This document shows positions 36,757-64,000 of a stretch of DNA of 64,000 bases, one piece after another. The translations under genes were made by a program, and so were the position numbers. The notes under the pieces are model-generated. The model ran no database searches. It worked only from the letters and a program-made list of their open reading frames with translations, and was not told the DNA's origin. The first letter of the stretch is position 1; the number at the start of each line of letters is the position of its first letter. The stretch comes from Gemmobacter caeruleus (GTDB lineage Bacteria > Pseudomonadota > Alphaproteobacteria > Rhodobacterales > Rhodobacteraceae), in NCBI RefSeq assembly GCF_008271655.1, contig NZ_VKKX01000044.1, forward strand, positions 295,763 to 359,762, read 5' to 3'.

Positions 36757-37977
36757 TCAGGCGAAAAGATCGTGGCACAGCTCCAGTGCCTCGACCAGTT
36801 TGTCGATCTCGGCTTCGGTATTATACAGCGCAAGCGAGGCACGGCAGGTCGCCGTCACCCCCAGATGCTGCATCAGCGGCATGGCGCAATGGGTGCCCGC
36901 GCGCACGGCGATGCCCTTCTTGTCCAGCACGGTGGAAATGTCATGCGCATGGGCCGGCCCCTGCATGGTGAAGGAAAAGATCGCGCCCTTCTCGACAGAA
37001 TTTCCCTGAATGTTCAGCCAGTTGAGCCCGGACAGCCGCGCATTTGCATAGTCGCGCAGCGCCCGTTCGCGCGCGGCGACCTGCGCCATGCCCAGACCCA
37101 TCAGGTAATTCAGCGCGACCCCCATGCCGATCTGCTGCACGATGCCGGGGGTGCCCGCCTCGAACCGCATCGGTGGCGCGGCATAGCTGACCGCGTCGCG
37201 GGTGACCTCGCGGATCATGTCGCCACCGCCGAGGAAGGGGCGCATCTCCTCCATCCGCTCGCTACGGATATAGATCGCCCCCGAACCTGAGGGGCCATAG
37301 AGCTTGTGCCCGGTGATGGCGTAGAAATCACAGCCAATCGCCTGCACATCGACCGGCATATGCACCGCGCCCTGGCTGCCATCGACCAGCACCGGCACGC
37401 CCCGCGCCCGCGCCGCCCGGCAGATCGCGGCGACATCGACCACGGTGCCGGTCACGTTCGACATCTGGGTGATCGCCACCAGCCGCGTCTTCGGGCCGAT
37501 TGCGTCGATCACCGCCTGCGGGTCCAGGTCGCCATTCTGGTCACATTCGACCCATTTCAGCACCACGCCCTGCCGTTCACGCAGGAAATGCCAGGGCACG
37601 ATATTGGCGTGATGTTCCAGGATCGACAGCACGATCTCATCGCCGGGTTGCAGCCGCGGGGCGGCCCAGGCGTAGGAAATCAGGTTGATCCCCTCGGTCG
37701 CACCGGTGGTAAAGACGATCTCCTCCTCCGACCCGGCATTGAGGAAGCGCGCGACGATGCCGCGCACCGCCTCGTATTTCTCGGTCGCGAGATTCGACAG
37801 GTAATGCAGCCCGCGATGCACATTTGCATATTCATGCGAGTAGCTTTGCAAAATCGAGTCGATCACCACCTGCGGCTTTTGCGCCGAGGCGCCGTTGTCC
37901 AGATAGACCAGCGGCTTGCCATTCACTTCCCGCGCGAGAATCGGGAAATCGGCCCGGACCTTGGCAATATCCAGCAT
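36757..37977 (-). CDS. sufS: Cysteine desulfurase SufS
   Basis: 406-residue PLP enzyme releasing cysteine sulfur as an enzyme persulfide for Fe-S assembly. The PLP lysine is in AITGHKLYGPSG; the catalytic loop Cys364 is in RAGTHCAMPLM (same number as E. coli SufS); LDNGASAQKP and HRGLHYLS mark the SufS group. The ATG at 37977 shares its A with the YIP1 stop (TGATG). Last gene of the suf unit. Its coding DNA contains TTTGCA motifs at 37043, 37823 and 37845. Confidence 0.96.
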   Translation of the reverse strand: MLDIAKVRADFPILAREVNGKPLVYLDNGASAQKPQVVIDSILQSYSHEYANVHRGLHYLSNLATEKYEAVRGIVARFLNAGSEEEIVFTTGATEGINLISYAWAAPRLQPGDEIVLSILEHHANIVPWHFLRERQGVVLKWVECDQNGDLDPQAVIDAIGPKTRLVAITQMSNVTGTVVDVAAICRAARARGVPVLVDGSQGAVHMPVDVQAIGCDFYAITGHKLYGPSGSGAIYIRSERMEEMRPFLGGGDMIREVTRDAVSYAAPPMRFEAGTPGIVQQIGMGVALNYLMGLGMAQVAARERALRDYANARLSGLNWLNIQGNSVEKGAIFSFTMQGPAHAHDISTVLDKKGIAVRAGTHCAMPLMQHLGVTATCRASLALYNTEAEIDKLVEALELCHDLFA

Positions 37978-38474
37978 CACTGCCCCCCTTGCGCGACCCG
38001 CCGCGCCCCGCGCAGATTGCGCATCCACAGATACAGGAACCCGGCAAAGGTCAGCGCGCCGATCAAGGTCTTGGCCGGCCCCGGCCCCATGAAGCCCGCC
38101 ACCAGCCCGTTCAGCAGCAGCAAGGGCGCGATGGCCAGCAGCGCCCAGAACAGCGCCATTCGCGCCCCGAAACCGCTGACCGGGGCACCGAACAGCCGCA
38201 TTGCAAATTGCGAAGCCAGCGCCAGCAAATATGCAAAAAGCGGCCAGATGAAAATCGTCGCCAGCAGCGCCGCACCAAAGCGCGCATCCAGCGGCCGGGA
38301 CGGATCCAGAAAGGCATCACGCGACAGTTGCGGCCATTGCGCGACAAAGCTGACAAGGCTTGCACCCATCAGCGTGGCCAGCGCACGATCCTCGCGCGGG
38401 CCGCCCGCCAGCCGGCGCGCCATCACCGTTTCGGGCGCGCGCCAACTGGCCAGCATGTCACGCAGCACCGACAT
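37977..38474 (-). CDS. YIP1-family membrane protein
   Basis: 165-residue inner-membrane protein with four to five hydrophobic segments (around residues 33-47, 67-90, 105-125 and 132-150). It fits the YIP1 domain family and is regularly found between sufD and sufS in Rhodobacterales, though no Fe-S role is established. Start and stop both overlap neighbours by one base (TGATG). It carries TGCAAA motifs at 38202 and 38232. Confidence 0.82.
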   Translation of the reverse strand: MSVLRDMLASWRAPETVMARRLAGGPREDRALATLMGASLVSFVAQWPQLSRDAFLDPSRPLDARFGAALLATIFIWPLFAYLLALASQFAMRLFGAPVSGFGARMALFWALLAIAPLLLLNGLVAGFMGPGPAKTLIGALTFAGFLYLWMRNLRGARRVAQGGQ

Positions 38475-39748
38475 CAGCCACCGTGCCGCCCGAGCCAGGC
38501 TTCCAGCCGTGCACGGATATCCTCGGCGATCGCCTCATCCTCGATCTCGCCGATGGCCTCGGCCAGGAAGGCCAGCACGAGCAGCGATTGCGCCTGCCGT
38601 AGCGGCACACCGCGCGACCGCAGGTAGTAAAGTGCCGTTTCGTCAATCGCGCCCGAGGTCGATCCATGCGAACATTTCACGTCATCGGCATAGATCTCAA
38701 GCTCCGGCTTGGCCAGGAACTGCGAGGTTTCGTCGAGCAGCAGGCTCTGGCTGATCTGATAACCATCGGTCTTTTGCGCGCCCGGCTGCACCAGAATCTT
38801 GCCCTGGAACACGCCGACCGCGCCGTTCTTCAGCACCTTCTTGAACACCTGGCGGCTTTCGCAACGCTCGGCGGCATGGGTCACGAAAACCGTATCGTCA
38901 TGGTGGAAATCGCCGTCGCCGACCGCAGCGCCTGCCACATGCGCCACCGCATCGTCGCCGGTCAGTTCCAGCACCGCCTCATTGCGGGTCAGAACGCCAT
39001 TCGCAGTCAGAGTGAAGCTCTTGAACAGCGAACCGGCGCCCAGACGGGCAAAGATATGCGTCACCGCGCGGCGTTCGTGATCACGCCCCTGCGCACGGAT
39101 GTGATGGAAACGCGCGCCATCGGCGACCTCGACCTCCAGCACCTTGTTGAAGCGCGCGGCGGCCGGACCGTTTTCCAGCAGCGTCAGTTCCGCCCCCGGT
39201 GCCAGCTTCACGCAATGATGGAGGATCGCATCAGAAGACTCTGATTTATGAAGATAAATCAGATTGATCGGCCGCGCCGCCCTGCCGGTTACATGGATCA
39301 GCACACCTTCGGTCGCCGCGGCGGTATTCAAGGCCGCCAGCGGGCGCGCGACGGGGGTCTGGCCCCGCGCCTCCAGCACACCATAAAGACCCTGCGCCCA
39401 ATGGATATCGGCGCCCGCACTGAGGAATTCCACCCCCGCCGCGGCGGGATCGTCGGATTGCGTCGGGTCGAAAACCCCATCGACAAAGACCAGCCGCACC
39501 CGGTCGATCCCGTCGAAAAGCGGCGTCTCGTCGCCCGCGTCGAACAGCGCGGCCGGCGTCGGTTGCGCCGCAGTCAGCGTCGTCGGGTCGGTGTAGCGCC
39601 AATATTCATCGCGCTTGCCCGGCAGGCCCATGGAGGCCAGACGCGCCTGCGCATCGGCCCGGGCCGGCGCCGACCAGCCGCCCTGCGGAAGGCTCAGCCC
39701 CGCCAGACGCGCGGCCAGCGCATCCTGTTTCGCCTGCGCCACCGCCAT
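38474..39748 (-). CDS. sufD: Fe-S cluster assembly protein SufD
   Basis: 424-residue subunit of the SufBC2D scaffold. The N-terminal helical part (GLPGKRDEYWRYTDP) is followed by the right-handed beta-helix (FHHIRAQGRDHERRAV) and the conserved C-terminal ADDVKCSHGSTSGAID and YYLRSRGV, holding the His/Cys cluster-binding region. The ATG overlaps the sufC stop; a GTG codon just before it is the alternative. Confidence 0.95.
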   Translation of the reverse strand: MAVAQAKQDALAARLAGLSLPQGGWSAPARADAQARLASMGLPGKRDEYWRYTDPTTLTAAQPTPAALFDAGDETPLFDGIDRVRLVFVDGVFDPTQSDDPAAAGVEFLSAGADIHWAQGLYGVLEARGQTPVARPLAALNTAAATEGVLIHVTGRAARPINLIYLHKSESSDAILHHCVKLAPGAELTLLENGPAAARFNKVLEVEVADGARFHHIRAQGRDHERRAVTHIFARLGAGSLFKSFTLTANGVLTRNEAVLELTGDDAVAHVAGAAVGDGDFHHDDTVFVTHAAERCESRQVFKKVLKNGAVGVFQGKILVQPGAQKTDGYQISQSLLLDETSQFLAKPELEIYADDVKCSHGSTSGAIDETALYYLRSRGVPLRQAQSLLVLAFLAEAIGEIEDEAIAEDIRARLEAWLGRHGG

Positions 39749-40503
39749 CACAGCACCTCGGCCAGAATGTCGGCATACCCGTTGTTCTCGACCTCGAGCG
39801 CCAGTTCCGGCCCGCCGGTCTTCACGATGCGGCCATCGGCCATGATATGCACCACATCAGGTTTGATATGGTCCAGAAGCCTTTGATAATGCGTGATGAC
39901 CAGGAATGCCCGGCCCGCATCGCGCAGCGCGTTCACCCCATCGGCCACCAGCTTCATCGCGTCCACATCGAGCCCCGAATCCGTCTCGTCAAGGATGCAC
40001 ATCTTGGGTTCCAGCATCGCCATCTGAAGGATTTCGTTGCGCTTCTTCTCACCGCCCGAAAAGCCCACATTGACCGGGCGCTTCATCATCTCGGCGTCGA
40101 TTTTCAGCGCCTTGGCCTTTTCCCGCACGACCTTGAGGAATTCGCCCGCGCTCATTTCCTCTTGCCCGCGCGCCTTGCGTTGCGCGTTCACGGCGGTCCG
40201 CAGAAAGGTCATGTTGCCGACGCCCGGAATTTCGACCGGATATTGGAAGGCTAGGAACAGGCCAGCGGCGGCGCGTTCCTCGGGCTCCATCTCCAACAGC
40301 TCAACGCCGTCCAGCGTTGCGGAACCGTCGGTCACCTCATAGCCGTCGCGCCCCGACAGCACGTAGCTCAGCGTCGATTTGCCCGACCCGTTCGGCCCCA
40401 TGATCGCATGCACCTTGCCGGCCTCGACCGTCAGGTTCACACCCTTGAGGATCACCTTGTCGTCTTCTTCAAGCTTGACGTGCAGGTTGTTGATTTCCAG
40501 CAT
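39748..40503 (-). CDS. sufC: Fe-S cluster assembly ATPase SufC
   Basis: 251-residue ABC-type ATPase. Walker A IMGPNGSGKST, Q-loop AFQYPVEIPG, signature NVGFSGGEKKRNEILQ and Walker B CILDETDSGLDVDA are all SufC-specific. It drives conformational change in SufBC2D. It starts 17 bp after sufB ends. Confidence 0.97.
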   Translation of the reverse strand: MLEINNLHVKLEEDDKVILKGVNLTVEAGKVHAIMGPNGSGKSTLSYVLSGRDGYEVTDGSATLDGVELLEMEPEERAAAGLFLAFQYPVEIPGVGNMTFLRTAVNAQRKARGQEEMSAGEFLKVVREKAKALKIDAEMMKRPVNVGFSGGEKKRNEILQMAMLEPKMCILDETDSGLDVDAMKLVADGVNALRDAGRAFLVITHYQRLLDHIKPDVVHIMADGRIVKTGGPELALEVENNGYADILAEVL

Positions 40504-40520
40504 TTTTCTGATCCAGTATC

Positions 40521-42038
<1,518 letters not shown>

Positions 42039-42048
42039 GCGTCCCTCC

Positions 42049-43092
42049 TCAGACCCGCGCGCGGGCCTTGCGATAAAGTGCGGTCCAGGCTTCGGCAAAG
42101 CGCAGCGCCTGGTCCTTCGTCGTGTCCGGCCCGATCGAGACCCGCAGCGCCGAGGCGGCGGCGGTGTCATCGAAGCCCATGGCGCGCAGAACCCGGCTGG
42201 CCTTGACCTTGCCCGAGGAACAGGCCGAGCCCGCCGAAACGGCGAAACCCGCCAGATCCATCTGCATCACCTGCGTCTCGCCCTTCCAGCCCGGCGTCAC
42301 CAGACACAGGGTATTCGGAAGCCGCGCGGCGCCTTTTCCGACTGAAATAGTCTCATTTGCTTCGGCTGACAATGCTGACTCTAGAATATTTCTAATTTCA
42401 GCCACCTGATCCCAGATGCCATTGGCCAGATCGCGCGCCGCCGCCTCGGCCGCAGCGGCGAAACCGGCGATGCCGATCAGGTTTTCGGTGCCGGCGCGGC
42501 GGCCCATTTCCTGCCCGCCGCCGCGGATCTGCGCGGTGATGTCCAGCCCGCGCCGGATCACCAACGCCCCGATTCCCTTGGGCCCGCCCAGCTTGTGCGC
42601 CGAAACCAGCCCCATATCGGCGCCCAGCCAGTTGAAGGCCAGCGGCACCTTGCCAAAGGCCTGGGTCAGGTCGCTGACGGCCAGCCCTTCAGGCAGTGTT
42701 TGCAATATGCCGGTCTCAGAGTTTGCATATTGCAGCGCGCTGCGCGGCGGGTCCGACACCGCCACCTGCCCCGCGCGATCGGCCGCCAGATCAGCTGCGC
42801 ACCAGGCGCTGACCGCCTCATGCTCCACCTCGGCACAGCGCAGCCCGCGCCCGGCACAGGCCAGCGCCGCCGCCTCGGTGGCGCCCGAGGTGAAGACAAG
42901 ATCGGCGCCATCGGCCCCGAGCGCCGCCGCGATCTGACCGCGCGCATGTTCCATCAACGCCTTGGCCGCGCGCCCCTCGGCATGGACAGAGGAAGGGTTG
43001 CCCACGACCTCCATCGCCGCGACCATCGCCGCCTTCGCCTCGGGGCGCAGCGGGGCAGTGGCGTTCCAGTCGAGATAGCTGCGCGGCGTCAT
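42049..43092 (-). CDS. IscS/NifS-like cysteine desulfurase
   Basis: 347-residue class V aminotransferase. Opening [18 protein letters not shown] lysine in [27 protein letters not shown], and active-site Cys in [17 protein letters not shown] with the longer group I loop. It is shorter than E. coli IscS (404). It lies upstream of sufB, so the operon has two different desulfurases (this one and SufS). The ATG overlaps the cysS stop (ATGA). Confidence 0.93.
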
Positions 43093-44447
43093 GCGAGAAC
43101 CGGCAGTTTCGCAGGGTCGAATCCCGCCGCCGGCAGCAGTTCGACCCCGGCCTTCGACATGCGCACCTCTACCCCCGCCGCCATCAGCGCGGATTTCATC
43201 GCATCGACGGCAGAGAAATCCTTGCTTTCCATGGCCTTGTCCCGCAACGCCCCGAGCTGCGCCGCATAGGGGGCAAGGTCGATCGTCACTTCGGCCCAGG
43301 CCCCCATCTCCGGCTCCAGCAGCCCCAGCAGCTGTGCCGAGGCCAGCAGCCCGGCCGCGTCCCCCGCCCCGGCCAGGCGATGCAGTTCCGCCAGGGCGCC
43401 CGCGGTATTGAGATCTTGCGACAGCGCCGCAACCACCGCCTCCGCCACCGCGCCCGGCGCGGCACCCGCCGTCAGCATCCGCCATTTGCGCAGCGTCGCC
43501 TCGGCCTGCGCAGCCTTTTCCGCCGTCCAGTCCATCGGCTTTGCATAATGGGTTTGCAAATATACCAGACGGATCACCTCGCCCGGATAGCCCTGATCCA
43601 GCAGATCGCGCACGGTGAAGAAGTTGCCGAGCGATTTCGACATCTTCTTGCCCTCGACCTGGAGCATCTCATTATGCATCCAGATATTTGCAAATTTGCC
43701 AGACGGGTTTGCACAGCAGCTCTGCGCCACCTCATTCTCATGATGCGGGAATTGCAGGTCGATGCCGCCGCCATGAATATCGAAGGTCTCGCCCAGCAGT
43801 TCGCGACTCATAGCCGAGCATTCGATATGCCAGCCCGGCCGCCCCCGCCCCCAGGGGCTGTCCCAGCCCGGCAGGTCGTCGGAGGAGGGTTTCCACAGCA
43901 CGAAATCCATCGGATCGCGCTTGTAAGGCGCGACCTCGACCCGGGCGCCGGCGATCATGTCATCGACCGACCGGCCCGACAGCGCGCCATAGGCCGGAAA
44001 ACTGCGCACATCGAACAGCACATGCCCCTCGGCCGCATAGGCGTGCCCGCGCGCGATCAGCGCCTCGATCATGGCGATCATCGGACCGATGTAATCGGTC
44101 GCGCGCGGCTCATGCGTCGGGCGCAGCGCGCCGAGCGCGTCCATATCGGCGTGATACCAGCCGATCGTCTCGTCCGTGATGGCGCGGATCGGGCGGCGGG
44201 TCTCGGCCGCGCGAGCGTTGATCTTGTCATCGACATCGGTGAAATTGCGCACATATGTCACGTTTTCAAGGCCATAGACATGGCGCAGCAGCCGGAACAA
44301 CGTGTCGAAGACTACGACGGGCCGGGCATTGCCGATATGCGCGCGGTCATAGACGGTCGGGCCGCAGACATACATGCGCACCTTGCCGGGTTGCAGCGGC
44401 TGCAACGCCTCATCCTGACGGGTGCGGGTATTCCAGAGCCTGATCAT
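43089..44447 (-). CDS. cysS: Cysteinyl-tRNA synthetase
   Basis: 452-residue class I synthetase. HIGH-type motif [13 protein letters not shown] with the zinc Cys in [17 protein letters not shown] and [15 protein letters not shown] for zinc and cysteine, and KMSKS in [14 protein letters not shown]. It is the first gene of the operon that goes on to cysteine desulfurase and suf genes, which groups two cysteine-consuming functions. TTTGCAAA occurs at 43553 and 43687 inside it. Confidence 0.97.
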
Positions 44448-44505
44448 GCGGGCCTCCTTGCGGTCTGGCCTGCGGGATAGCGGTTTCGCGCCGATTTGGA
44501 AAGGC

Positions 44506-46314
44506 TCAGGCCTTTTCGGCCAGGATAAGCCATTCCTCCTCGGCAGCGCCGAGCGCGGCCTGGCGTTCGGCCAACATTTCGGTCGCTTTGCGAAACTTCA
44601 CCGGCTCCTTTGCAAACAGGTCCGGATCGGCCAGCAAATCCCCCAGCTTTGCAATTTCATGTTCCAGCTTTGCAATCACATCCGGCAGCGCATCCAGCCG
44701 CTTGCGTTCGGTAAAGCTCAGCCCTTCGGCCTTGCGCGGTGCGGCGGCCACGGGTTCAGCCGGTTTCGGCGGGGCGGACCGGGCGGCGGCGGCGGCCTCG
44801 ACCGGCGCGGGGCGCTGCGCGAGGTAATCGGTCCAGCCGCCGGCATAGACCGTGGCGCGGCCTTCGCCCTCCAACGCGATGGTGGTGGTGGCAACGCGGT
44901 CGATGAAATCGCGGTCATGGCTGACCAGCAGCACCGTGCCATCATATTCACCCAGCAGATCTTGCAAGAGATCGAGCGTCTCCACATCCAGATCGTTGGT
45001 CGGTTCGTCCAGAATCAGCAGGTTGCTTTCCTGCGCCATCAGCCGCGCCAGCAGAAGCCGCGCCTTTTCGCCGCCCGAAAGCGACCGCACCGGCGCCCGG
45101 GCCTGCTGTTCGCTGAACAGGAAATCCTTGAGATAGGCGACCACATGTTTGGGCACGCCGCGTACCATGACCTGATCCGAAGCGCCCGACACCGCCATCA
45201 GCGGATCGCCGGTCAGGTTTTCCCACAGGGTCGCATCGGCATCGAGCTGGGCGCGGGTCTGGTCAAATACCGCGATTTGCAAATTGGTGCCCAGCGTCAC
45301 CGTGCCGGCATCGGGCGCCTCTTGCCCGACCAGCATCTTGAGCAGCGTGGTCTTGCCGATACCATTCGGCCCGACAAAGGCGACCCGGTCGCCGCGCAGC
45401 ACGCGCAAGTCGAAATTGCGAATGATGCATTTTGCATCATAGGCTTTGCAAAGTCCGGTCGCCTCGATCACCTTCTTGCCCGAGGTCGGGCCGCTGTCGA
45501 GCTCCAGGGCCGCCGTGCCCTGGCGGCGGATCATCGCTGCCCGTTGCGCGCGCAGATCCTGCAAGGCCCGCACGCGCCCCATATTGCGCTTGCGCCGGGC
45601 CGAGATGCCCTCGACCGCCCATTTCGCCTCATGCTTGATCTTGCGTTCCAGCTTGTGCCGGGCGTCATCTTCCTCGGTCCAGATCTGCTCGCGCCACTCC
45701 TCGAATCCGTCAAAGCCCGTCTCGCGGCGGCGCACCTGGCCGCGATCGACCCAAAGCGTCGCGCGGCTCAGCGCCTTGAGAAAGGCGCGGTCGTGGCTGA
45801 TCAGCACAAAGGCCGTGCGGGTTTCGGACAGTTCACGTTCAAGCCACTGAATTGCCTGGATATCCAGATGGTTCGTGGGTTCGTCCAGCAGCATCAGCTC
45901 TGGCGCTTCGGCCATCAGCTTGGCCAGAGCCGCCCGCCGGCGTTCCCCGCCCGAGGCGGCGGAGACAAGCGTTTCGGGGCGGAATTTCAGCCCCTCGGCC
46001 ACCACGGCCACGCGATAGGCCTCATCCTCGGGCAGATGCGCGGCGGCGTAATCGCCCAGCGTCGCATAAGAAGACAGATCGGGATCCTGCTCCATATAGC
46101 CGACGGTCACACCGGGGGGCACGGTGCGCGTGCCGGCATCGGGTTCGACCAGCCCCGCCATGATCTTCATCAGGGTGGATTTGCCCGATCCGTTGCGCCC
46201 GACCAGCGCCACGCGATCGCCGGGCTGGACCGTCAGGTCGAGCCCCTCGAACAGGGGGTTTCCACCGAAGGTGAGCGAGATGCCGGAAAGCTGGAGAAGG
46301 GGTGCGCGTGCCAT
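44506..46314 (-). CDS. ABC-F family ATPase (Uup-like)
   Basis: 602-residue soluble protein with two ABC domains. Walker [10 protein letters not shown] (about residue 40) and GPNGIGKTT (about residue 330), signatures [12 protein letters not shown] and [12 protein letters not shown], and Walker [11 protein letters not shown] and [10 protein letters not shown]. The charged linker between them contacts the ribosome in ABC-F proteins. The C-terminal coiled-coil tail (from about 520) fits Uup, whose tail binds DNA. Several TTTGCAAA motifs fall in the tail and middle. Confidence 0.92.
45422..45440. repeat. Inverted repeat inside the ABC-F gene
   Basis: ATGATGCA-TTT-TGCATCAT, perfect 8-bp arms, with a TTTGCAAA 5 bp further on (45445-45452). 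It is part of the TTTGCA-rich pattern of this region. Confidence 0.55.
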
Positions 46315-46379
46315 GCCGCCGAGGTAGCCGCGCGAATGAGAACCGTCAAGCCGGGCGCTTGCGGCTGCAAATTGCAAAC

Positions 46380-47090: not shown

Positions 47091-47123
47091 GGCGCGACCC
47101 CCTGCCCGGCGGCGCGGCCCGCC

Positions 47124-53611: not shown

Positions 53612-53620
53612 CCGCGCGCC

Positions 53621-54253: not shown

Positions 54254-55044
54254 TCACCCTCCTTGCGACGGATCTGGATCGGGGCAAAGGTTTCGCCCTG
54301 GCGGATCTGGATCTGTCCGCGCTTGGCCATTTCCAGCACCGCCGCGAAATGCGCCGCCAGCGAGGAGCGCCGGCGCATCGGATGGGCATCCCAGCCCTCG
54401 GGCATCCAGCTTTCCAGATCGGACCAGTCGCCGACATAGCCGATCAGCCCGCGCATCCGGTCCAGCGCCTGTTCCATGGTGAACACGTCGTGACGATCCA
54501 TCACGAAGGGGCGGAATTCGTCCTTGGTGCGGATGCGGGCATAGGCGCGCATCAGGTCGATCAGCGCGGCGGAATAGACCACCTTGCGGCTGCGCGCGAC
54601 CTCTTCGGTCTGACCGCGCACAAAGAAATCGCGCCCGCGCTGGTCCCGCGCCATCAGCCGCGCCGCCACTTCGCGCATGGCTTGCAGGCGTTCGAGCTGA
54701 AAGGCCAGATGGGCGGCCAGATCCTCGGCGCTCGGCCCGTCTTCGGTCGGGTCGGGTGGCAGCAACAGGCGCGATTTCAGATAGGCGAGCCAGGCCGCCA
54801 TCACCAGATAATCCGCGGCAAGTTCGATCCGCAACGCCTTGGCCTTGTTGACGAAACCCAGATACTGCTCGGCCAGTTGAAGGACCGAGATGCGCCGCAG
54901 GTCAACCTTTTGACTGCGCGACAGCGACAAGAGCAGATCGAGCGGCCCCTCGAACCCGTCCACATCGACGATCAGCGCCTCGGCGGCCAGCCTGTCGCTG
55001 ACGCTCTGGTCCTTCTGTTCGTCGATCCAGTCGCGGTCAGACAT
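54250..55044 (-). CDS. scpA: Segregation and condensation protein ScpA
   Basis: 264-residue kleisin. FEGPLDLLLSLSRSQKVDLR at the N-terminal SMC-neck binding part, DYLVMAAWLAYLKSRLLLP, and a C-terminal winged helix (HFAAVLEMAKRGQIQIRQGETF) binding the SMC cap. MSDRDW was chosen as start; it overlaps the nagZ stop by 8 bases. Confidence 0.95.
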   Translation of the reverse strand: MSDRDWIDEQKDQSVSDRLAAEALIVDVDGFEGPLDLLLSLSRSQKVDLRRISVLQLAEQYLGFVNKAKALRIELAADYLVMAAWLAYLKSRLLLPPDPTEDGPSAEDLAAHLAFQLERLQAMREVAARLMARDQRGRDFFVRGQTEEVARSRKVVYSAALIDLMRAYARIRTKDEFRPFVMDRHDVFTMEQALDRMRGLIGYVGDWSDLESWMPEGWDAHPMRRRSSLAAHFAAVLEMAKRGQIQIRQGETFAPIQIRRKEGE

Positions 55045-56053: not shown

Positions 56054-57102
56054 CGCAGGGTGACCGGGATGCAATCGGTGCTTTCGGCGGTCAGCGCGGC
56101 GCAGAAGCGGCGGGCATCGGCCTCATCGGCAAAGCCTTCGGCGCGCAGGCGATAGAAGGTGCGCCCGCCGCTTTCGGCGGCCTGCACCACGCGGCCCTTG
56201 CCCGCCATCAATTCGCCAAAGCGGCCCGCGATGCGATCCCAGGCGGCGCGGGCCTCATCCTCGCTGTCAAAGGCGCCGAACTGCACCAGCCGGGTGCCAA
56301 GCGCCAGCGCCGCCGGATCGACCTCCCGCGCTGCGATGCCAAGGGCCGCGGCCACGGCGGCATCGGTGGCAGAGGGCGCGGCAGCGCCGGCCAGCGCGCC
56401 GGGCCGGGCCAGCGGCCGGATCGAGCGGCCCAACCCGCCCGCCACCACAGGCGCGGACTCAGACCCCACTTCGGGCGCGCTCAGCGGCGCCGCCCCGGCG
56501 GCAAGACTATCGGCCAAAGCCAGAACATCGGCCGGGGCGCCGGCCCCAGCCTCATCGCCCAGAGGTGCGACGGTGGTCAGCGGATCCAGCGGCAGGTCGG
56601 TGATCGCGGCCTCAGCCACGCCATCGGCCGCAGGCAGCGCGACCGGCTCTTGCGCGACGGGGGCCAGCAGTTCGGCCGGTGGTTCGGGCGCAAGGCCCGG
56701 CCCGTCCTCGGCCGCCAGATCGACCGGACGCGGCGCCAGCACGATTTCATCGGGCAAGGGCGTCGCCACCCCGACCGCCGCAACATCGTTGACCGAAAGC
56801 CCCTGATGCGCCGTCACCTCGCCGCCGGGATTTTCCGGCGCGACGCGCATCGGCCCTTCGACCGCCTTGATGACGGGAATGCCCAGAACATTGCGCACGG
56901 CGATCTTGTAGCCCCAGACGCCCGCGCCCAGCAGCAGCGCCAGCGATGCCGCCGCGCCCAGCAGGTTCAGCATACGCCGCCCCTGGGCGCCACCGCGACC
57001 CGGCCCGCCCTGACGACGACCGCCCTGCCCCTGCGCCCGCCCGCCCTGACGGGGCCGCGGCGCGGCCTCCCCGGCGTAACGGTCATAATTCACATCAGCC
57101 AT
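56050..57102 (-). CDS. SPOR-domain membrane protein
   Basis: 350 residues. A Gly/Arg/Gln-rich cytoplasmic tail (1-43), one membrane helix (45-67), a long Pro/Ala-rich periplasmic linker (80-265) and a C-terminal SPOR domain (about 270-350; VQFGAFDSEDEARAAWDRI; RFCAALTAESTDCIPV). SPOR domains bind denuded peptidoglycan at the division site, so a cell-division role is inferred. It lies between argS and nagZ. Confidence 0.9.
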   Translation of the reverse strand: MADVNYDRYAGEAAPRPRQGGRAQGQGGRRQGGPGRGGAQGRRMLNLLGAAASLALLLGAGVWGYKIAVRNVLGIPVIKAVEGPMRVAPENPGGEVTAHQGLSVNDVAAVGVATPLPDEIVLAPRPVDLAAEDGPGLAPEPPAELLAPVAQEPVALPAADGVAEAAITDLPLDPLTTVAPLGDEAGAGAPADVLALADSLAAGAAPLSAPEVGSESAPVVAGGLGRSIRPLARPGALAGAAAPSATDAAVAAALGIAAREVDPAALALGTRLVQFGAFDSEDEARAAWDRIAGRFGELMAGKGRVVQAAESGGRTFYRLRAEGFADEADARRFCAALTAESTDCIPVTLR

Positions 57103-57172
57103 GCTCTGCCCCAAGCGTGCAGGGCCCGCGGGCCCTGACGGTTTGCCTGTTCCCCGGGCCGGGGCGCCATTC

Positions 57173-58915
57173 TCAGCGCATTTCCTCGACCGGAGTGACG
57201 CCCAGAATAGCAAGACCGGCGCAAATCACAACGCCCGCCGCCCGGGCGAGGCCGATTTTCGCCTGAGTCGTGGTCACATCCGCTTGCACAAAGCGCAGCG
57301 AAGGCTCGTCATTGCCACGGTTCCACAGCCCATGCAGGTCAGAGGCCAGCTCATAAAGGTAGAAGGCCACGCGATGCGGCTCGTTCCCCTTGGCGGCGAT
57401 TTCCACCAGACGCGGCCATTCGGCCAGCTTGGCGATCAGCGCCAGCTCCGCCGGATGGTTCAGCAGCGCCAGGTCTGCCGCCGCCAGCGTGGCGTCATCG
57501 ACCGCAACCCCGGCCTCACGCGCCTTGCGCAGCACGGAATTGATCCGCGCATTGGCGTATTGCACATAAAAAACGGGGTTGTCCTTCGACTGTTCCAGCA
57601 CCTTGTCGAAGTCGAAATCCAGCGCCATGTCGTTCTTTCGGGTCAGCATGACAAAGCGGGTCACGTCGGCGCCCACTTCCTCCACCACATCGCGCAGCGT
57701 GACAAAGGTGCCGGCGCGTTTGGACATCTTGAAGGGCTCGCCGTTCTTGTAAAGCTTGACCAGCTGGATCAGCTTGATGTCCAGCGGCACCCGGCCATCG
57801 GACAAGGCCGAGACGGCGGCCTTCATCCGCTTGACATAACCGCCATGGTCGGCGCCGAAAATGTCGATCAGCTGATCGAAGCCGCGCCGGACCTTGTTGT
57901 AGTGATAGGCGATATCGGGGGCGAAATAGGTCCACGACCCATCCGATTTCTTCACCGGGCGATCCACGTCATCGCCATGCGCGGTCGAACGGAACAGCGT
58001 CTGTTCACGCGGCTCCCAATCCTCGGGGGTCTTGCCCTTCGGGGGTTCCAGCACGCCCTCATAGATCAGGCCCATATTGCGCAGCGTGTCGATCGCGGCC
58101 TCGATCTCGCCGGTGCCATACAGCGCCTTTTCGCTGGAATAGACATCCATCCGCACGCCAAGCGCGGCCAGATCCTCGCGGATCATCTGCATCATGCGTT
58201 CGGTGGCGAATTCGCGCACATCGTCCAGCCAGACGGATTCCGGCTGGTCGATCAGGCTGGTGCCGTATTTGTCCTTCAGCGCCTCGCCCACCGGGATCAG
58301 GTAATCGCCGGGATACAGCCCCTCGCGGATTTCAGGCTCCAGCCCATTGGCCTCGCGGTAGCGTTCATAGGCCGAGCGGGCCAGCACGTTGACCTGCGCG
58401 CCGCCGTCGTTGATGTAATATTCGCGCGTCACGTTCCAGCCGGCAAAGGCCAGCAGGTTTGACAGCGCATCGCCCACCACCGCGCCGCGCACATGGCCCA
58501 CATGCATCGGCCCGGTCGGGTTGGCGGAGACGAATTCGACATTCACCTTCTGCCCGGCCCCCAGATCGGAGCGCCCGTAATCGGCGCCCGTTTCCAGGAT
58601 CGCCCTGGCCAGACCCTGCCAGACCACGGGTTGCAGGCGCAGGTTCAGAAAGCCAGGCCCCGCCACCTCGGCGCTGGCGATGCGCGGATCGGTGGCCAGT
58701 CGGGCGGCCAGCGCCTCGGCGATCACGCGGGGTTGCTGGCCCGCGGGTTTGGCCAGCACCATCGCGGCATTGGTGGCCATGTCGCCATGCGCCGCATCGC
58801 GCGGCGGCTCGACCGCGACGGCCCCCATGTCCAGACCGGCGGGCAGCAGCCCGGCCTCGGTCATCGCGCCCAGTTCGGTGATCACGGCTTTGCGCAATTC
58901 GGTGAAAAGGTTCAT
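57173..58915 (-). CDS. argS: Arginyl-tRNA synthetase
   Basis: 580-residue class I synthetase. HIGH-type motif [20 protein letters not shown], the [16 protein letters not shown] region in place of a canonical KMSKS, and a C-terminal anticodon-binding domain with the N-terminal Add1 domain present. [11 protein letters not shown] is the start. Confidence 0.97.
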
Positions 58916-58965
58916 CTCGTCCGTCCTTCCTGACCCCCGGCTCTTGCCAGAGGGCGGAAGGCGGG

Positions 58966-59259
58966 TCAAGTTCGCGCCGCAGCCGGGCCGGGTTTCGTCA
59001 GGAAATGCAGACCCAGGATCAGCGCGCTGAGGCCCCAGACCGCCAGCGGCGTGGTGCGCAGCGCGGCCATGCCGGCGGCATAGCGCGGCGGATCGACAAA
59101 GGCGAGGCCGATGAGGGCCAGAACCGCCAGCACCGTCGCGGGCCGGATCGCGCGGTTCAGCAGTTCCAGCGCGGCCGGCAAGGCGGGGCTATCAGCCTCT
59201 TGCAGCAGTTCCGCGATGCGTTTGAGCCGCGCCGCGTCGGACAGAAAGCTCAGCCCCAT
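58966..59259 (-). CDS. GTA-type 3TM holin
   Basis: 97-residue protein with two clear hydrophobic segments (about residues 40-58 and 72-88) and a short amphipathic N-terminus ([14 protein letters not shown]). It matches the family described as the holin for gene-transfer-agent release (Pfam GTA_holin_3TM), by pattern and by linkage: its ATG lies 10 bases inside the end of the endolysin gene. It is predicted to permeabilise the inner membrane so the endolysin reaches the wall. Confidence 0.78.
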
Positions 59260-59858
59260 GCCGCCACCCGCGCGCGATGCTGTGCCTCGGTCAGGTGCAG
59301 GGCTGGCGTGATAAAGCTTTCGGCCCGGGTGATCCAGCCGCCCTTGCCGCCATCGCGGCGGCGACAATATTTGCGGCTGGCGGGGCGGGCATCGCCAAGC
59401 GCATAGTAATAGTCGCGCCGTGCCACGCCATAGGCATCGGCCAGATGCGCGACATTGGCCGCCGCGCGCTCGGCCGCCGCGATGGTCTTTGGCCCGATCG
59501 CACCATCCACCAACAGCGGAAAGCCCAGCCGGATCAGCAGCCGTTGCAGGATGCGCACCGCATTGGCGCCGGCATTCACATACATGTCAAAGAGTGCGGG
59601 CTGCAAAACCACAGGCAAATTTGCAATACCGGGCTTTGCAAAGTAGTGGCGCAGGTAAATCTCCACCGCCTGTTCGCGGCTCAGCCGGCGCACATCGGCG
59701 GGGGTGACGCGGCCATCGCCATTCAGATCGAGGCCCAGCCCGCGCAGTGTATGGATCGTCACCCCGTGATTGGTGGCGCCGCCCGGATCGTCGGGGTCGT
59801 TCACATACCCGCCTTCGCGCGCGACGATTTCCTCTGCCAGTTCCCGCACCGTCTTCAT
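59250..59858 (-). CDS. Holin-associated N-acetylmuramidase (GH108 endolysin)
   Basis: 202-residue muramidase without signal peptide, consistent with holin-dependent export. The GH108 signature AREGGYVNDPDDPGGATNHG carries the catalytic Glu15. A calcium-loop-like DLNGDGRVTPAD sits near residues 44-55. The C-terminal peptidoglycan-binding half follows (VDGAIGPKTIAAAE; GGWITRAESF). It pairs with the downstream holin as a lysis module of the type used for GTA release in Rhodobacter. TTTGCA motifs occur at 59602-59642. Confidence 0.87.
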   Translation of the reverse strand: MKTVRELAEEIVAREGGYVNDPDDPGGATNHGVTIHTLRGLGLDLNGDGRVTPADVRRLSREQAVEIYLRHYFAKPGIANLPVVLQPALFDMYVNAGANAVRILQRLLIRLGFPLLVDGAIGPKTIAAAERAAANVAHLADAYGVARRDYYYALGDARPASRKYCRRRDGGKGGWITRAESFITPALHLTEAQHRARVAAWG

Positions 59859-59902
59859 GCCAGCCCCCGTTCTTGCCGGGTGACAGCATGGTCATGGCGC
59901 GA

Positions 59903-59917
59903 TTAAGCGCCCGGTAA
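59903..59917 (-). promoter_or_regulatory. CtrA-like box upstream of the lysis genes
   Basis: On the minus strand: TTAC, seven bases, TTAA (one mismatch from TTAA-N7-TTAA), 44 bp upstream of the endolysin ATG. GTA release genes in Rhodobacter capsulatus depend on CtrA, which makes the site plausible. Confidence 0.4.
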
Positions 59918-59928
59918 GGCAGCGCGCG

Positions 59929-60384
59929 TTACGATCCGCTCTGTTCGTTCGGATCGTGATAGACGCCTTGCTCCTTCAACGCCTCCATCACCTCTTTCGG
60001 CATATAGCTCTCGTCATGCTTGGCGAGGATTTCGGTCGCCTCGAAAGTGTCGCCAACCATCTGGCCGGTGCCGATCATGCCCTGCCCTTCCTTGAACAGG
60101 TCGGGCAGCACGCCGGTAAAGGTGACGGGCACGATCTCGGCCCCGTCGGTCACGTTGAAGCGGATGGTTTCACCCTGCCCGCGCACCAGGCTGCCGGGTT
60201 CGACCAGCCCGCCCAGGCGGAACACCTCGCCCGCCTCGGGCGGCTCGGCGATGACCTGCGCCGGCGCGCGGAAAAAGTTGATCCCGTCGCGCATCGCATA
60301 GCCGATCAGCGCCGTCGATCCCGCCAGCGCCACGAAGGCCAGCGCGAGGATCTGGATCCGCCGGGTTTTCTTCAACCCCTTCAT
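59929..60384 (-). CDS. ccmE: Cytochrome c maturation protein CcmE
   Basis: 151-residue periplasmic heme chaperone anchored by one N-terminal helix (about residues 10-30). The heme-binding His123 lies in LAKHDESYMP, followed by a flexible tail. OB-fold strands include VTFTGVLPDLFKEGQG. It starts 10 bp after argC ends; no other ccm gene is adjacent. Confidence 0.96.
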   Translation of the reverse strand: MKGLKKTRRIQILALAFVALAGSTALIGYAMRDGINFFRAPAQVIAEPPEAGEVFRLGGLVEPGSLVRGQGETIRFNVTDGAEIVPVTFTGVLPDLFKEGQGMIGTGQMVGDTFEATEILAKHDESYMPKEVMEALKEQGVYHDPNEQSGS

Positions 60385-60394
60385 CTTGGTCTCC

Positions 60395-61423
60395 TTACGG
60401 GAAGACGGGGGCCAGCATCAGGCCCGCGGTCTCCTCCAGCCCCAGCATCAGGTTGGCATTCTGGATCGCCTGCCCCGAAGAGCCCTTGGTCAGGTTGTCC
60501 AGCACCGCCACGATCAGCGTGCGGCCGGGAATCCGGTCCGCCACCACACCGATATGACAGTAATTGGACCCACGAATGTCGCGTGTCGAGGGGACTGCGC
60601 CGAAAGGTAGCACCTCGATGAACGGCTCCAGCGCATAGCGCGCCTCCAGCGCGGTCCAGCAGGCCCTGGCGTCGCCCTTCACATAGACCGAGGCCAGAAT
60701 GCCGCGATTCATCGGCGCCAGATGCGGGGTGAACTGCACCAGCACCGGGCGCCCGGCGATCTTGCTGAATTCCTGGTCGAATTCCCCCAGATGCCGGTGC
60801 TTGCCACCGGCGGAATAGGCATGCGTGCCCTCCGACAGTTCGGCATGCAGGAGGTTTTCCTTGAGCGACCGCCCCGCCCCCGACACGCCGCATTTCAGAT
60901 CCAGCAAGATGTCATCCAGATCGATGCAACCGGCCTCGATCAGCGGGCGCAGCGCATATTGCCCGGTGGCGGCATTGCAGCCGGTGCCGGCGCAAAGCCG
61001 CGCGGCCCGGATATCGTCGCGGTAGAATTCGGTCAGGCCATAGACCGCCTCGGCCTGCAATTCCGGCGCGGCATGGGGCTGGCCATACCATTTCTCGTAT
61101 TCCGCCACGTCGCGCAGCCGGAAATCCGCCGACAGATCGACCACCCGCAAATCGCGCGGCAGCGCCTTGATCACCGCCTGACTGGTGGCATGCGGCAGGG
61201 CGCAAAATGCCAGATCCACTTTTGCAAAATCAATCTCGTCGATTTTGCAAAGCTTGGGCAGGTTCAGATGACGCAGAAAGGGAAACACCTCGGCCATCTC
61301 CAGCCCCGCCTTGCGGTCGGCCGACAGGGCCACGATTTCCATCTGCGGATGGCTGGCGATCAGGCGCACCAGCTCGGCGCCGGTATAGCCCGATGCCCCA
61401 AGGATTGCGATGCGCTTCTTCAT
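60395..61423 (-). CDS. argC: N-acetyl-gamma-glutamyl-phosphate reductase
   Basis: 342-residue arginine-biosynthesis dehydrogenase. The Rossmann start is [39 protein letters not shown] and [15 protein letters not shown] are conserved. The catalytic Cys lies in [12 protein letters not shown], where the usual family form is NPGCYPTA. TTTGCAAA occurs twice in the 5' third (61221 and 61244). Confidence 0.93.
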
Positions 61424-61486
61424 GGTTCGCCCCCTCTTGTCGCGGTCGGTTTCTCTTTGCGGCGCTGGGGCGCGCGATGCAAGAGC

Positions 61487-62251
61487 CTAATGGTCGCGCG
61501 GCGTCAACTCTCCGGCACGGATCGCAAAGGCCAGCCGGTTTTCCGGCGGCGGCAGCGGGCAGATCGCAAAGGGCGTATAGGCGCAAGGCGGGTTGTGCAG
61601 GCGGTTGAAATCCAGCCGCACCCGATGGCCCGCCACCTCGCCAATCAGAAAGCGCGAGGCGCCATAGGTCTCGTGACCGGAGGTCGCGTCGCGGATGACG
61701 AACATCGGCCGGCCCGCCTTGATATGGGTCGGGACCAGCGCAACCTGTTGCCCCGCATGGGAAAACCGCGCGACATGGGTCTGGCGCACGCTGTCGCTGC
61801 GCCCCGCAACCATCGCGATGTCGCGCAAGACCGGCACCGGCAGTTCGTGCCATTCCGCGTCGATCACCCAGTCCGGGTCAAAGGGAAAGCTGTCGATGCC
61901 GGCAAAATCGCACCGCGCCGGATGGTCGATCTGGCGCAGCCGCAGCGCCGCCGCCCCTTCGACAATGTGAATTTCCAGGATCAGACCGGCGATGCGCAGC
62001 GTGTCGAACCCGCCCGGGCCGGGCGCAAAATCCAGCACCTGCCCCTCGGGCATTTCCAGCCGCGCGGTCAGGTCCGGCGCAAGGACCAGCGTGCCCAGCA
62101 GGTCCGGCCCCACCGAGAGCCGCAGATCGTGATCGCCCCGCCCCAGCGTCAGGCGCCCCGGCGCGATCTCGATCCGGTCGGTCAGGTTCAGCCATCCGTC
62201 CTCGGCGGTCAGCGCCGCCAGACGCGCGGCCTGCCAGTCCTCATGGGTCAT
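61487..62251 (-). CDS. DUF1684 domain protein
   Basis: 254-residue cytoplasmic protein of the DUF1684 family, with the diagnostic C-terminal [20 protein letters not shown] and [16 protein letters not shown]. The family is widespread and its biochemical function unestablished. The ATG overlaps the murI stop, so it is co-transcribed with murI. Confidence 0.88.
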
Positions 62252-63060
62252 GCCGCCTCAAAACTGATGCGGCGGCGCAGGAATTGCGTCGCCTTGGAGG
62301 ACACATTGGCCGGGTCGCCGGTCGTCAGGAACTTCGACACCTTGCCCGCGCCCAGGAATTCCGGACGCCGCACCAGGTAATCGGCCAGGCTGTCCGCCAC
62401 CAGATTGGCCTGGCTGAACACCTTGACATCGGCCCCGAGCGCCTCTTGAAAAGCGTTTTGCATCAAGGGGTAATGGGTGCATCCCAGAATGGCGGCCTGC
62501 GGATGCGGCATGCGCCGCTTCAACGCCTCAACATGGCTGCGCACCAGCGCCTCGGCCAGAATTTCGTCGCCCTGTTCGATCGCATCGACCACGCCGCCGC
62601 AGGGCTGCGCCTCGACATCCACGCCGATGGCGCGGAAGGCCAGTTCGCGCTGAAAGGCGCGGCTGGCCACGGTGGCAGGCGTTGCAAACAGCGCCACATG
62701 CTTGACCGCGACCTCGCGCGGGGGGCTGTTGTCGCCCCATTGCCGTTCGGTCAGCGCCTCGATCAGCGGCACGAACACCCCCAGCACGCGCTTGCCCGGC
62801 GGCAGCCAGCTTTCCTGCATCCGTTTCAGCGCGGCGGCCGAAGCGGTGTTGCAGGCGAGGATCACCAGATCGCAGCCCTCGGCCCAGAGCCGTTCGGTCG
62901 CGGCGCAGGTCAGGTTGAAGATGTCATCATGCGTGCGCACCCCATAGGGTGCATGGGCATTGTCGCCGAAATAGACGAAGGGCACATCGGGCAAGCGCTT
63001 GCTGACGGCATCCAGCACCGTCAAGCCCCCGAGACCTGAATCGAAAACGCCCACGGCCAT
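62248..63060 (-). CDS. murI: Glutamate racemase
   Basis: 270-residue enzyme giving D-glutamate for peptidoglycan. [11 protein letters not shown], the catalytic Cys motifs [10 protein letters not shown] and GCTHYPLM, and [11 protein letters not shown] are all present. The start MAVGVFDSG was chosen from family similarity. The stop overlaps the DUF1684 start. Confidence 0.95.
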
Positions 63061-63187
63061 GACTGCCCTCCCTCTGACGGGGTGATTTGGCGCAGCATAG
63101 GCGCAGGGCGCAGCCGGGAAAAGAGCGAAGGCGCGGGCCCGTGCGTTTCGCACCGATTTTGCAGAACACGGCAGGACGGTTTGCAAA

Positions 63188-63218
63188 GGCCCGGCGGTTT
63201 TGCAAACCCCGCCGGGCC
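63188..63218 (-). terminator. Terminator after the indolepyruvate oxidoreductase gene
   Basis: Ten-base stem GGCCCGGCGG / CCGCCGGGCC with an 11-nt loop that itself contains TTTTGCAAA; on the minus strand it is followed by TTTGC. It is 10 bp beyond the stop of the gene that ends at 63229. Confidence 0.65.
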
Positions 63219-63228
63219 ATTTTGCAGA

Positions 63229-64000
63229 TTACGCCGCGAGGCGCGGGGCATCGCCCCCGGCGCGGATCGTGGCCAGCAGTTCGGACCGCCGCTCGGCGGC
63301 CTTGGCGGCATTGGCCTCCTTCACCGGACCATAGCCGCGGATCGACAGCGGCAATTCCAGCAATTCGACGATCGCCGTCTCGGTCGCGGGGCGCCAGAGC
63401 GGCAGAACCTCTGCCAGATCGGCCTCATATTGCGTGATCAGCGCGCGCTCCATGCGGCGTTCGGGGTGGCGCCCGAAGGGATCGAACGCCGTGCCGCGCA
63501 AGCCCTTCATCCGGGCCAGCAACCGGAACACCGGCAGGATCCACGGCCCGAAGGCTCGTTTCTTCGGCCGACCGTCCGACGCCTTGCCCGGCAGGATCGG
63601 CGGCGCCAGATGGAAGGTCGGGCGCAGATCGCCGGTCAGGCTTTCGCGCGCCTTGGCAAGCGTTTCCAGATGCAGGCGCGCAACTTCGTATTCATCCTTG
63701 TAGGCCAGAAGCTTGTGATAGCCCTTGGCCAAGGACGGGCGCAGCGCCTCGGGCGCGGCATGGACGCGGGCGACGAACCGGTCGGCCAGCGCGTTATCCT
63801 GATAGGCGCGCAGGTGATCGGCGCGGAAGGCCACGGGATCGACCGTCGGCTTTTCCTCGGGCCGCATCAGCGCGCGGGCCTGATCGGGATGAGCCTGCGC
63901 AAAGCGGCCCAGATCGAAGGCGCGCAAATTGGCCTCGACGCCCGCCCCGTTCAGCTCCACCGCGCGGCGCAGCGCCGCCAGCGACAGCGGCACCAGCCCG
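63229..64000 (-). CDS. Indolepyruvate ferredoxin oxidoreductase, C-terminal part
   Basis: The 3' end, about 256 codons, of a gene running off the right edge. FHLAPPILPG, RAFGPWILPVFRLLARMKGL and TAFDPFGRHPERRMERALI match the C-terminal DUF6537 region of the large fused IorA/IorB-type 2-oxoacid:ferredoxin oxidoreductase, which oxidises arylpyruvates from aromatic amino acids. No start is in the window; the cluster-binding and TPP domains are off the edge. Confidence 0.88.
   Translation of the reverse strand, partial: GLVPLSLAALRRAVELNGAGVEANLRAFDLGRFAQAHPDQARALMRPEEKPTVDPVAFRADHLRAYQDNALADRFVARVHAAPEALRPSLAKGYHKLLAYKDEYEVARLHLETLAKARESLTGDLRPTFHLAPPILPGKASDGRPKKRAFGPWILPVFRLLARMKGLRGTAFDPFGRHPERRMERALITQYEADLAEVLPLWRPATETAIVELLELPLSIRGYGPVKEANAAKAAERRSELLATIRAGGDAPRLAA

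What the first reader, a model, noticed from the sequence alone, without database searches (positions are those of the whole stretch)
36800..63230. Iterated palindrome TTTGCAAA confined to the right part of the window
By reading every line, the self-complementary octamer TTTGCAAA starts at 37845, 40605, 43553, 43687, 44609, 45276, 45445, 53598, 59635, 61221, 61244, 63180 and 63199: 13 times in about 27 kb, none in the first 36.6 kb. With roughly 17% each of A and T, well under one is expected. The six-base relatives TTTGCA/TGCAAA number about 37 here and 6 to the left (2 of those in one tandem repeat). They cluster in twos to fours, often 13-23 bp apart. In sufB the core falls in different codon phases (TTT TGC AAA; TTG CAA; GAA TTT GCA) with normal protein sequence, and other copies lie in intergenic DNA, so the constraint looks DNA-level. 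A protein-binding, uptake/recombination or HIP1-like iterated palindrome are possibilities.
Basis: partly seen in the sequence, partly recalled or inferred. Interest (0 to 1): 0.75.

Follow-up and report, generated by a model that had tools for sequence, protein, structure and literature searches.

The report
Terminus-linked array of palindromic DNA boxes
A short mirror-symmetric DNA word has been written by point mutations again and again into ordinary housekeeping genes in one 25-kb stretch near the place where chromosome copying ends, probably as a landing array for a protein that holds or positions that part of the chromosome.

Summary
In detail: 13 TTTGCAAA within 25.4 kb, none to their left in the window. 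The own genome (4.0 Mb) has 46, 13 of them here; synonymous-codon shuffling gives 0.2 in these genes against 10 seen. So it is no genome-wide HIP1-like or uptake word. The genes are syntenic housekeeping genes. Seven congeners at 80-83% DNA identity keep 1 of 62 aligned octamers; G008, as diverged, keeps 10 of 12: the word itself is selected. 10 of 13 have a partner box 13-16 or 19-25 bp away, against 2 of 18 non-array octamers. The array lies 153-178 kb from a dif-like site at the GC-skew maximum. In some other genera, boxes paired at about 22 bp lie around the terminus, some beside the same genes. Best reading: sites of a terminus-organising protein, working like matS/MatP with an unrelated sequence. 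The binder is unknown; ScfR regulators (same octamer at promoters) and ZapT are candidates, neither shown. G005, inside the clade, lacks the half of the array that could be read.

The parts
37845..63206 (.). whole array: 13 octamers TTTGCAAA; 24 further half-box centres lie in 36-64 kb
37823..37852 (.). pair: TTTGCA 37823 + octamer 37845 (centre spacing 22), in sufS; octamer identical in G008
40570..40612 (.). triple: ATTGCAAA 40570 (also in G005, G009), CTTGCAAA 40592, octamer 40605 (spacing 22, 13), 3' part of sufB; identical in G008
42699..42729 (.). near-octamers TTTGCAAT 42699 (TTTGCACA in G008) and TTTGCATA 42722, in the iscS-like gene
43540..43560 (.). TTTGCATA 43540 + octamer 43553 (spacing 13), in cysS; octamer identical in G008
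43687..43715 (.). octamer 43687 + TTTGCACA 43708 (spacing 21), in cysS; octamer identical in G008 and in G003
44609..44676 (.). octamer 44609 (TTTGCTAA in G008) and near-octamer pair 44648/44669 (spacing 21; both TTTGCAAT in G008), in uup
45276..45283 (.). single octamer in uup, not conserved in G008 (TTTGCAGG)
45431..45452 (.). TTTGCA 45431 + octamer 45445 (spacing 14), in uup; octamer identical in G008
46366..46394 (.). half box 46366, ATTGCAAA 46371, TTTGCAAT 46387, uup/olsB junction; not conserved in G008
53598..53605 (.). octamer between dcd and scpB; unaligned in G008, which has two octamers 17 bp apart in the corresponding stretch (C324:10546/10563)
59602..59642 (.). TGCAAA 59602, TTTGCAAT 59620, octamer 59635 (spacing 15 between the last two), in the GH108 gene; 59620 and 59635 identical in G008
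61221..61251 (.). octamer pair, centre spacing 23, in argC; identical in G008; a pair also lies in argC of another genus (G284)
63158..63228 (.). quartet: TTTGCA 63158, octamers 63180 and 63199, TTTGCA 63221 (spacing 22, 19, 22), probably intergenic between the racemase gene (whose frame is open to 63186, true start not known) and the DUF6537 oxidoreductase gene; both octamers identical in G008
51259..52152 (+). MerR-family gene directly after ihfA (ZapT homologue by the ihfA-neighbour criterion of PMC7188993; ihfA recognised by eye); candidate binder near the array midpoint, not shown to bind

Best explanation
The region is an array of binding sites (box TTTGCAAA, often paired about 22 bp apart, that is two helical turns, or 13-16 bp) for a sequence-specific protein that binds as a dimer or higher oligomer and marks or anchors the terminus-proximal part of the chromosome, working like matS sites with MatP. 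Shown: the clustering, the selection on the DNA word, its origin by base substitution in place, the position near a dif-like site, the spacing preference, and terminus-linked pairs in some other genera. Inferred: that one protein binds all these sites, that it bridges or positions terminus DNA, and which protein it is.
For: 13 octamers in 25.4 kb; codon shuffle expects 0.22 in genes against 10. G008 keeps 10 of 12 aligned octamers; seven other congeners at similar overall identity (80-83%) keep 1 of 62, Fisher P about 1e-9, cells not independent. Where the stretch aligns, the boxes differ from other species by base changes in place, and some change residues in both G000 and G008: sufS Thr to Leu, cysS Gly to Gln (Gln also in G002). 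G008 has 21 octamers on four contigs of this stretch and its continuation. GC-skew maximum at C34:170-210 kb with a dif-like 28-mer at 180.8 kb, so the array is 153-178 kb away; similar dif-like sites in G003 and G010; the parS cluster of G003 lies opposite. G152: 13 of its 14 pairs are on the 1.34-Mb contig with its dif-like site, at -128 to +375 kb from it; 8 of 14 have spacing 21-24 (P 0.04). G206, 4.08-Mb chromosome: 12 of 12 pairs within 1.06 Mb of the skew switch, the 11 at spacing 21-24 within 0.73 Mb; P 1e-5 to 3e-3 by statistic and merging. Spacing exactly 22 in 11 of 20 pairs of G206+G284 (P 5e-8 against uniform 13-25). In G205, G206 and G284 a pair lies in argC or the DUF6537 gene, beside which the window has its pairs at 61.2 and 63.2 kb; two G206 pairs lie 2.5 and 8.4 kb from zapA. 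26 of 32 pairs examined in G152 (10 of 14), G205 and G206 lie inside an ORF of 100 codons or more, so no promoter preference; such ORFs cover most of this DNA anyway.
Against: No binder is shown. G005, sister to G008 in the tree (UFBoot 98; AU P 0.027 against G000+G008, with a warning of few replicates), has no octamer in the left half of the array (7 aligned sites); its contig ends before the right half, so a loss must be assumed. Most congeners examined and most family genomes lack the pattern although they too have termini. The array is one-sided and compact, not spread around dif as matS is. In G003 the 48 octamers show no cluster near its terminus. G152, G205, G206 and G284 were picked as outliers; the other 4 of the 8 genomes (G074, G387, G242, G104) show nothing comparable, and further high counts (such as G133, G138, G289) were not followed. 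In G205 the terminus bias of all ten pairs is weak (P 0.03-0.07). No clear dif was found in 80 kb at the G206 skew switch nor in the 100 kb read of G006 and G009. Conserved peptides (argC, DUF6537 protein) could help the same word to recur at the same place.
Confidence: 0.5

Rival explanations
1. The sites are bound by an ScfR-family acyl-CoA regulator (PccR/MccR/RamB type), which uses this very octamer at its promoters; the array is a regulatory or titrating (decoy) array. (ScfR co-opted as the terminus architect would join this to the best explanation.)
For: PrpR of M. tuberculosis is reported to recognise TTTGCAAA + TTTGCgAA (passages of PMC6765138). In 5 of 5 congeners whose octamer places were listed (G000, G003, G008, G009, G010) an octamer lies about 1 kb from a ScfRs (PF09856) gene. 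G205 has a pair just upstream of a carboxyl-transferase gene and 1.4 kb from a ScfRs gene. Near the ScfR gene of G000 (C1:607126) partner boxes lie 25 and 23 bp away, so such spacings also occur at ScfR-type promoters; I had first held spacing against this rival and raise it from 0.27 to 0.30.
Against: 10 of 13 array octamers lie inside genes of unrelated housekeeping function. The PF09856 gene number is the same in G000 and G008 (2) as in G005, G006, G009, G010 (2 each). Terminus linkage and the clade-specific gain are unexplained.
Confidence: 0.3
2. The binder is ZapT, the MerR-family terminus-binding protein that links terminus DNA to ZapA/ZauP and the Z-ring; TTTGCAAA pairs would be its unknown recognition sequence.
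For: Caulobacter ZapT binds 10 loci, mostly in ORFs, all but one terminus-proximal, with no consensus found (passages of PMC7188993). A MerR gene next to ihfA (the zapT criterion of that paper) sits at window 51259-52152, at the array midpoint, with zapA (PF05164) and a coiled-coil gene at 71842-72853. Number of pairs in G206 and G152 resembles the number of ZapT peaks.
Against: The HTH of this protein is nearly identical in congeners without the array, and G003 has no octamer cluster near its terminus. The gene neighbours are the same in species without the array, so the proximity is not informative by itself.
Confidence: 0.13
3. A genome-wide iterated palindrome (HIP1-like), uptake signal or methylation/restriction word.
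For: Short perfect palindrome, many copies, in different codon phases.
Against: 46 copies in 4 Mb, 13 in 25 kb; absent at the locus in most congeners examined.
Confidence: 0.03
4. Chance, base composition, foreign DNA or a mutational hot spot.
For: The boxes are rich in A+T in DNA of about 66% G+C; new sites arise by substitution.
Against: Shuffles; synteny with congeners; octamers retained in G008 at 10 of 12 against 260 of 661 other A+T-rich 8-mers, binomial P 0.002.
Confidence: 0.04

Closest known systems
matS sites / MatP (enterobacteria, Vibrio)
   Same: A short word repeated in the terminus region and thought to tie it together (as told in PMC7188993, passages)
   Different: Other sequence (8-bp box, paired at about 22 bp, against the 13-mer matS); one compact 25-kb array here instead of an 800-kb spread; MatP is stated in PMC7188993 to be restricted to Enterobacteriaceae and Vibrionaceae
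ZapT binding loci (Caulobacter crescentus)
   Same: Alphaproteobacterial, terminus-biased, 10 loci, mostly in ORFs
ScfR-family operators (PrpR, RamB, PccR)
   Same: The same octamer TTTGCAAA; boxes in twos, also at 23-25 bp near the ScfR gene of this genome
   Different: Operators lie at promoters of CoA-metabolism genes; here many boxes inside unrelated genes
RacA ram sites and chromosomal parS clusters (recalled)
   Same: Clusters of palindromes that anchor one chromosome region
   Different: Those lie near the origin; the parS sites of this genome are on another contig (C23) and have another sequence
HIP1 of cyanobacteria (recalled)
   Same: Iterated palindromic octamer
   Different: HIP1 is genome-wide; this is local

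Membership tests
matS/MatP system | sites confined to the terminus region | tested here: inconclusive
   array 153-178 kb from the dif-like site and pairs around the terminus in G206 and G152, but weak in G205 and 33 single octamers elsewhere in G000
matS/MatP system | sites spread on both sides of dif over hundreds of kb | tested here: inconclusive
   not in G000 (one-sided, 25 kb); yes in G152 and G206
matS/MatP system | 13-bp matS consensus | tested here: not met
   the enriched word is TTTGCAAA with little information in the flanks
matS/MatP system | matP gene present | not tested
   no search for MatP was run; PMC7188993 states it is restricted to Enterobacteriaceae and Vibrionaceae
ScfR operator | octamer TTTGCAAA | tested here: met
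ScfR operator | lies in promoters of acetate/propionate-CoA genes | tested here: not met
   10 of 13 octamers are inside housekeeping genes
ScfR operator | bound by ScfR | not testable with these tools
   needs EMSA or ChIP
ZapT site | bound by ZapT | not testable with these tools
   needs ChIP or EMSA
ZapT site | array presence follows changes in the ZapT HTH | tested here: not met
   HTH near-identical with and without array
HIP1-like / uptake word | genome-wide over-representation | tested here: not met
   33 copies outside the array in 3.96 Mb

The most novel reading that the evidence does not exclude
A chromosome-anchoring array of a new sequence class that was built de novo by base substitutions in housekeeping genes of one small clade, has been conserved in two species and appears to be lost in a third, with related terminus-linked paired boxes in other genera; possibly read by a co-opted metabolic (ScfR) regulator. 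It would be a terminus organiser caught while arising and decaying.
Probability: 0.35. Interest if true: 0.9.

Novelty: new variant of a known kind. Interest (0 to 1): 0.72.

Why it matters
How bacteria outside the enterics mark and position the replication terminus is largely open: in Caulobacter the terminus binder ZapT is known but no DNA consensus was found (PMC7188993, passages). A defined box, its spacing preference, species with and without it, and a set of genomes make the question directly testable. It also gives a view of a multi-site chromosomal element that differs between close species while gene order is kept.

Tried and rejected
HIP1-like, uptake and restriction words: rejected by confinement. 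Foreign island at the tRNA-Arg at 36635: rejected by synteny across the genus. A clade-specific extra ScfR gene: PF09856 counts are not raised in G000 or G008. Clade-specific change in the ZapT HTH: none seen. Standard parS: on another contig in G000, none found in the fragmented G008. A dif pattern built on the recalled enterobacterial consensus gave no match in 3 of 6 genomes and, in G000, only places on contigs C8 and C55; the C34 dif-like site was found through G010. No consensus promoter or terminator at the quartet. Named relatives: 80 loci around cysS, up to 21 kb each, have at most 3 octamers; one, L177, has many half-boxes and was not followed. Two of my notes are superseded: G008 as the sister of G000 (favours G005+G008), and 11 of 13 octamers conserved (10 of 12). 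I first held partner spacing against ScfR; one search does not bear that out, and the ScfR odds went from 0.27 to 0.30. Low-completeness congeners G004 and G007 were not compared at the locus. Literature: 7 searches; in their listings I saw no report of a terminus-linked TTTGCAAA element. Papers seen as passages only: PMC10370305, PMC6765138, PMC7188993, PMC7858052; PMC4560284 was not held.
Full report
What was checked. The own genome has 46 TTTGCAAA (5 of the reversed control), of which 13 lie in C34:333607-358968, the window's right part. Contig C34 was read whole: TTTGCA/TGCAAA rises from 0-6 per 10 kb to 16-18 in three neighbouring bins, 330-360 kb, and falls back. Of the 6-mers and 8-mers compared between the region and 117 kb of surroundings, this word and its parts are the most enriched. 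In 23 genes of the region, synonymous shuffling leaves 0.22 octamers against 10.

What carries the array. The genes are the suf operon, an iscS-like gene, cysS, uup, olsB, bamE, plsX, fabH, ihfA, a MerR gene, dcd, scpB, scpA, nagZ, a SPOR gene, argS, a GH108 gene, ccmE, argC, a DUF1684 gene and a racemase gene (ihfA recognised by eye). Gene order is kept in the congeners at roughly 80% DNA identity where contigs reach, apart from a break in G010 and small gene differences such as a missing DUF1684 gene in G003 and G006. This is vertical DNA, not an island.

Comparison with relatives. In ten relatives (seven congeners G005, G009, G001, G010, G002, G006, G003; G011 and G012 of the family; G016 of the class) the 25-40 kb around sufB hold 0, 0, 0, 0, 0, 0, 1, 2, 0, 0 octamers. 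For G005 this is only the left half of the array, because its contig ends there. G010 is split after cysS; its other part has no octamer at C1:1030-1050 kb. G008 is different: 21 octamers on four contigs that cover the same region and its continuation. Aligned base by base, 10 of 12 of the window's octamers are identical in G008, at 82.7% overall identity; seven other congeners, 80-83% identical overall, keep 1 of 62. Where aligned, the boxes differ from the other species mainly by one to six substitutions in place; three sites (53598, 63180, 63199) do not align outside G008 or G003. Most changes are synonymous; some change residues in both G000 and G008. Outside the motif, the tree places G005 with G008, and G000 next to them (FastTree 1.0; UFBoot 98 and AU P 0.027 for G000+G008, few replicates). 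The simplest history is gain in the common ancestor and loss in G005; I cannot exclude a wrong tree at these short branches.

Anatomy. 10 of 13 array octamers in G000 and 17 of 21 in G008 have a second box TTTGCA/TGCAAA at a centre distance of 13-16 or 19-25 bp, against 2 of 18 non-array octamers of G000 (18 of the 33 were given). The commonest distances are 21-23 bp. Flanking bases carry little information. The densest place is the quartet 63158-63228 with spacings 22, 19, 22.

Place on the chromosome. The cumulative GC skew of C34 peaks at 170-210 kb, and a 28-bp sequence there (180.8 kb) resembles dif-like sites of G010 and G003; none was found in the 100 kb read of G006 and of G009. In the near-complete G003 the parS cluster is at 1.89-1.92 Mb of 3.38 Mb and sufB at 0.29 Mb, close to the opposite point. 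The array is thus terminus-proximal, 153-178 kb to one side of dif. An inversion with ends at C34:43.9 and 370.8 kb in G000 relative to G008 and G003 also spans the terminus.

Other genera. A survey of 394 family genomes, nearly all of different genera, with TTTGCAAA-N5..35-TTTGCA found matches in 294; most have 0-4 per strand, a few many more with 0 or 1 in the control. I listed places for eight: G152, G205, G206, G284, G074, G387, G242 and the less striking G104; other high counts (such as G133, G138, G289) were not followed. G152: 14 pairs, 13 of them on the contig with its dif-like site, at -128 to +375 kb from it. G206: the skew changes sign between 1.77 and 1.91 Mb of its 4.08-Mb chromosome, without a clear dif in the 80 kb read there, and its 12 pairs lie at 1.22-2.90 Mb; 11 of the 12 have spacing 21-24. 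G284: 6 of 8 pairs at 21-24, 5 at exactly 22; its terminus was not located. G205 is weaker: 3 of 10 at 21-24, those three within 0.33 Mb of the skew switch; the bias of all ten is marginal, and one of its pairs is an ScfR-type promoter site. G074, G387, G242 and G104 show nothing comparable; in G387 the pairs look like another repeated element. In G205, G206 and G284 a pair lies in the DUF6537 oxidoreductase gene, and in G284 also in argC, beside racemase and purL, the neighbourhood of the window's sites at 61.2-63.2 kb. Two G206 pairs lie 2.5 and 8.4 kb from zapA. The outliers were chosen for their pair counts, so only position and spacing, not number, are independent evidence, and shared peptides may favour recurrence at one place.

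Mechanism. The facts ask for a protein that reads the octamer in pairs on one face of the helix, is tolerant of gene context, acts near the terminus and is not needed at that site in every species. A terminus-organising, DNA-bridging protein fits best; this is inference. Two named candidates were weighed. ScfR regulators use this octamer and an octamer lies about 1 kb from a ScfR gene in 5 of 5 genomes examined, with partner boxes at 23 and 25 bp near one of them; but the array is neither promoter-bound nor linked to ScfR gene number. ZapT binds terminus ORFs in Caulobacter without a known consensus, and its likely gene lies at the array's midpoint with zapA 20 kb away, but its HTH is the same in species without the array. 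An unidentified protein of patchy distribution is at least as likely.

Confidence. That the array is real and selected at DNA level: about 0.95. That it serves terminus organisation: about 0.5. ScfR regulatory or decoy array 0.30 (raised from 0.27 after rechecking), ZapT 0.13, as separate readings.

Noticed in passing
window 47837-52274: 16 of the window's 56 GANTC (CcrM-type) sites fall in 4.4 kb around plsX-fabH-ihfA-MerR.
   Followed up: no
C34:43900 and C34:370800 (window about 75070): Inversion of G000 relative to G008 and G003 that spans the terminus.
   Followed up: partly
L016:7842-8853 (window scale 71842-72853): zapA (PF05164) and a coiled-coil gene (ZauP-like by position and look only, no Pfam match) beside tkt; with the ZapT-like gene and scpAB all near the terminus here.
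   Followed up: partly
window 51259-52152: The C-terminal part of the MerR protein is low in complexity and varies strongly between species, with EA repeats in G005 and G009.
   Followed up: no
L177 (uncultured Rhodobiaceae, around cysS): 37 half-boxes TTTGCA/TGCAAA in 21 kb against 9.0 expected from base composition, and 3 octamers: a possible distant parallel.
   Followed up: no
window 19456-19494: Repeat of TTTGCACCGGGGCC 38 bp apart.
   Followed up: no
G387, contigs C51, C111, C148, C156, C159: A recurrent element of about 31 bp beginning with TTTGCAAA and ending with TTTGCA, apparently a dispersed repeat unlike the array.
   Followed up: no
G010:C1: The syntenic block is split: suf to cysS near 0.70 Mb, uup onwards near 1.04 Mb.
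   Followed up: no
G152:C1:625850-625964: Two octamer pairs next to sufB in a gene that looks like sufD in another genus; the window's array also begins in the suf operon.
   Followed up: partly
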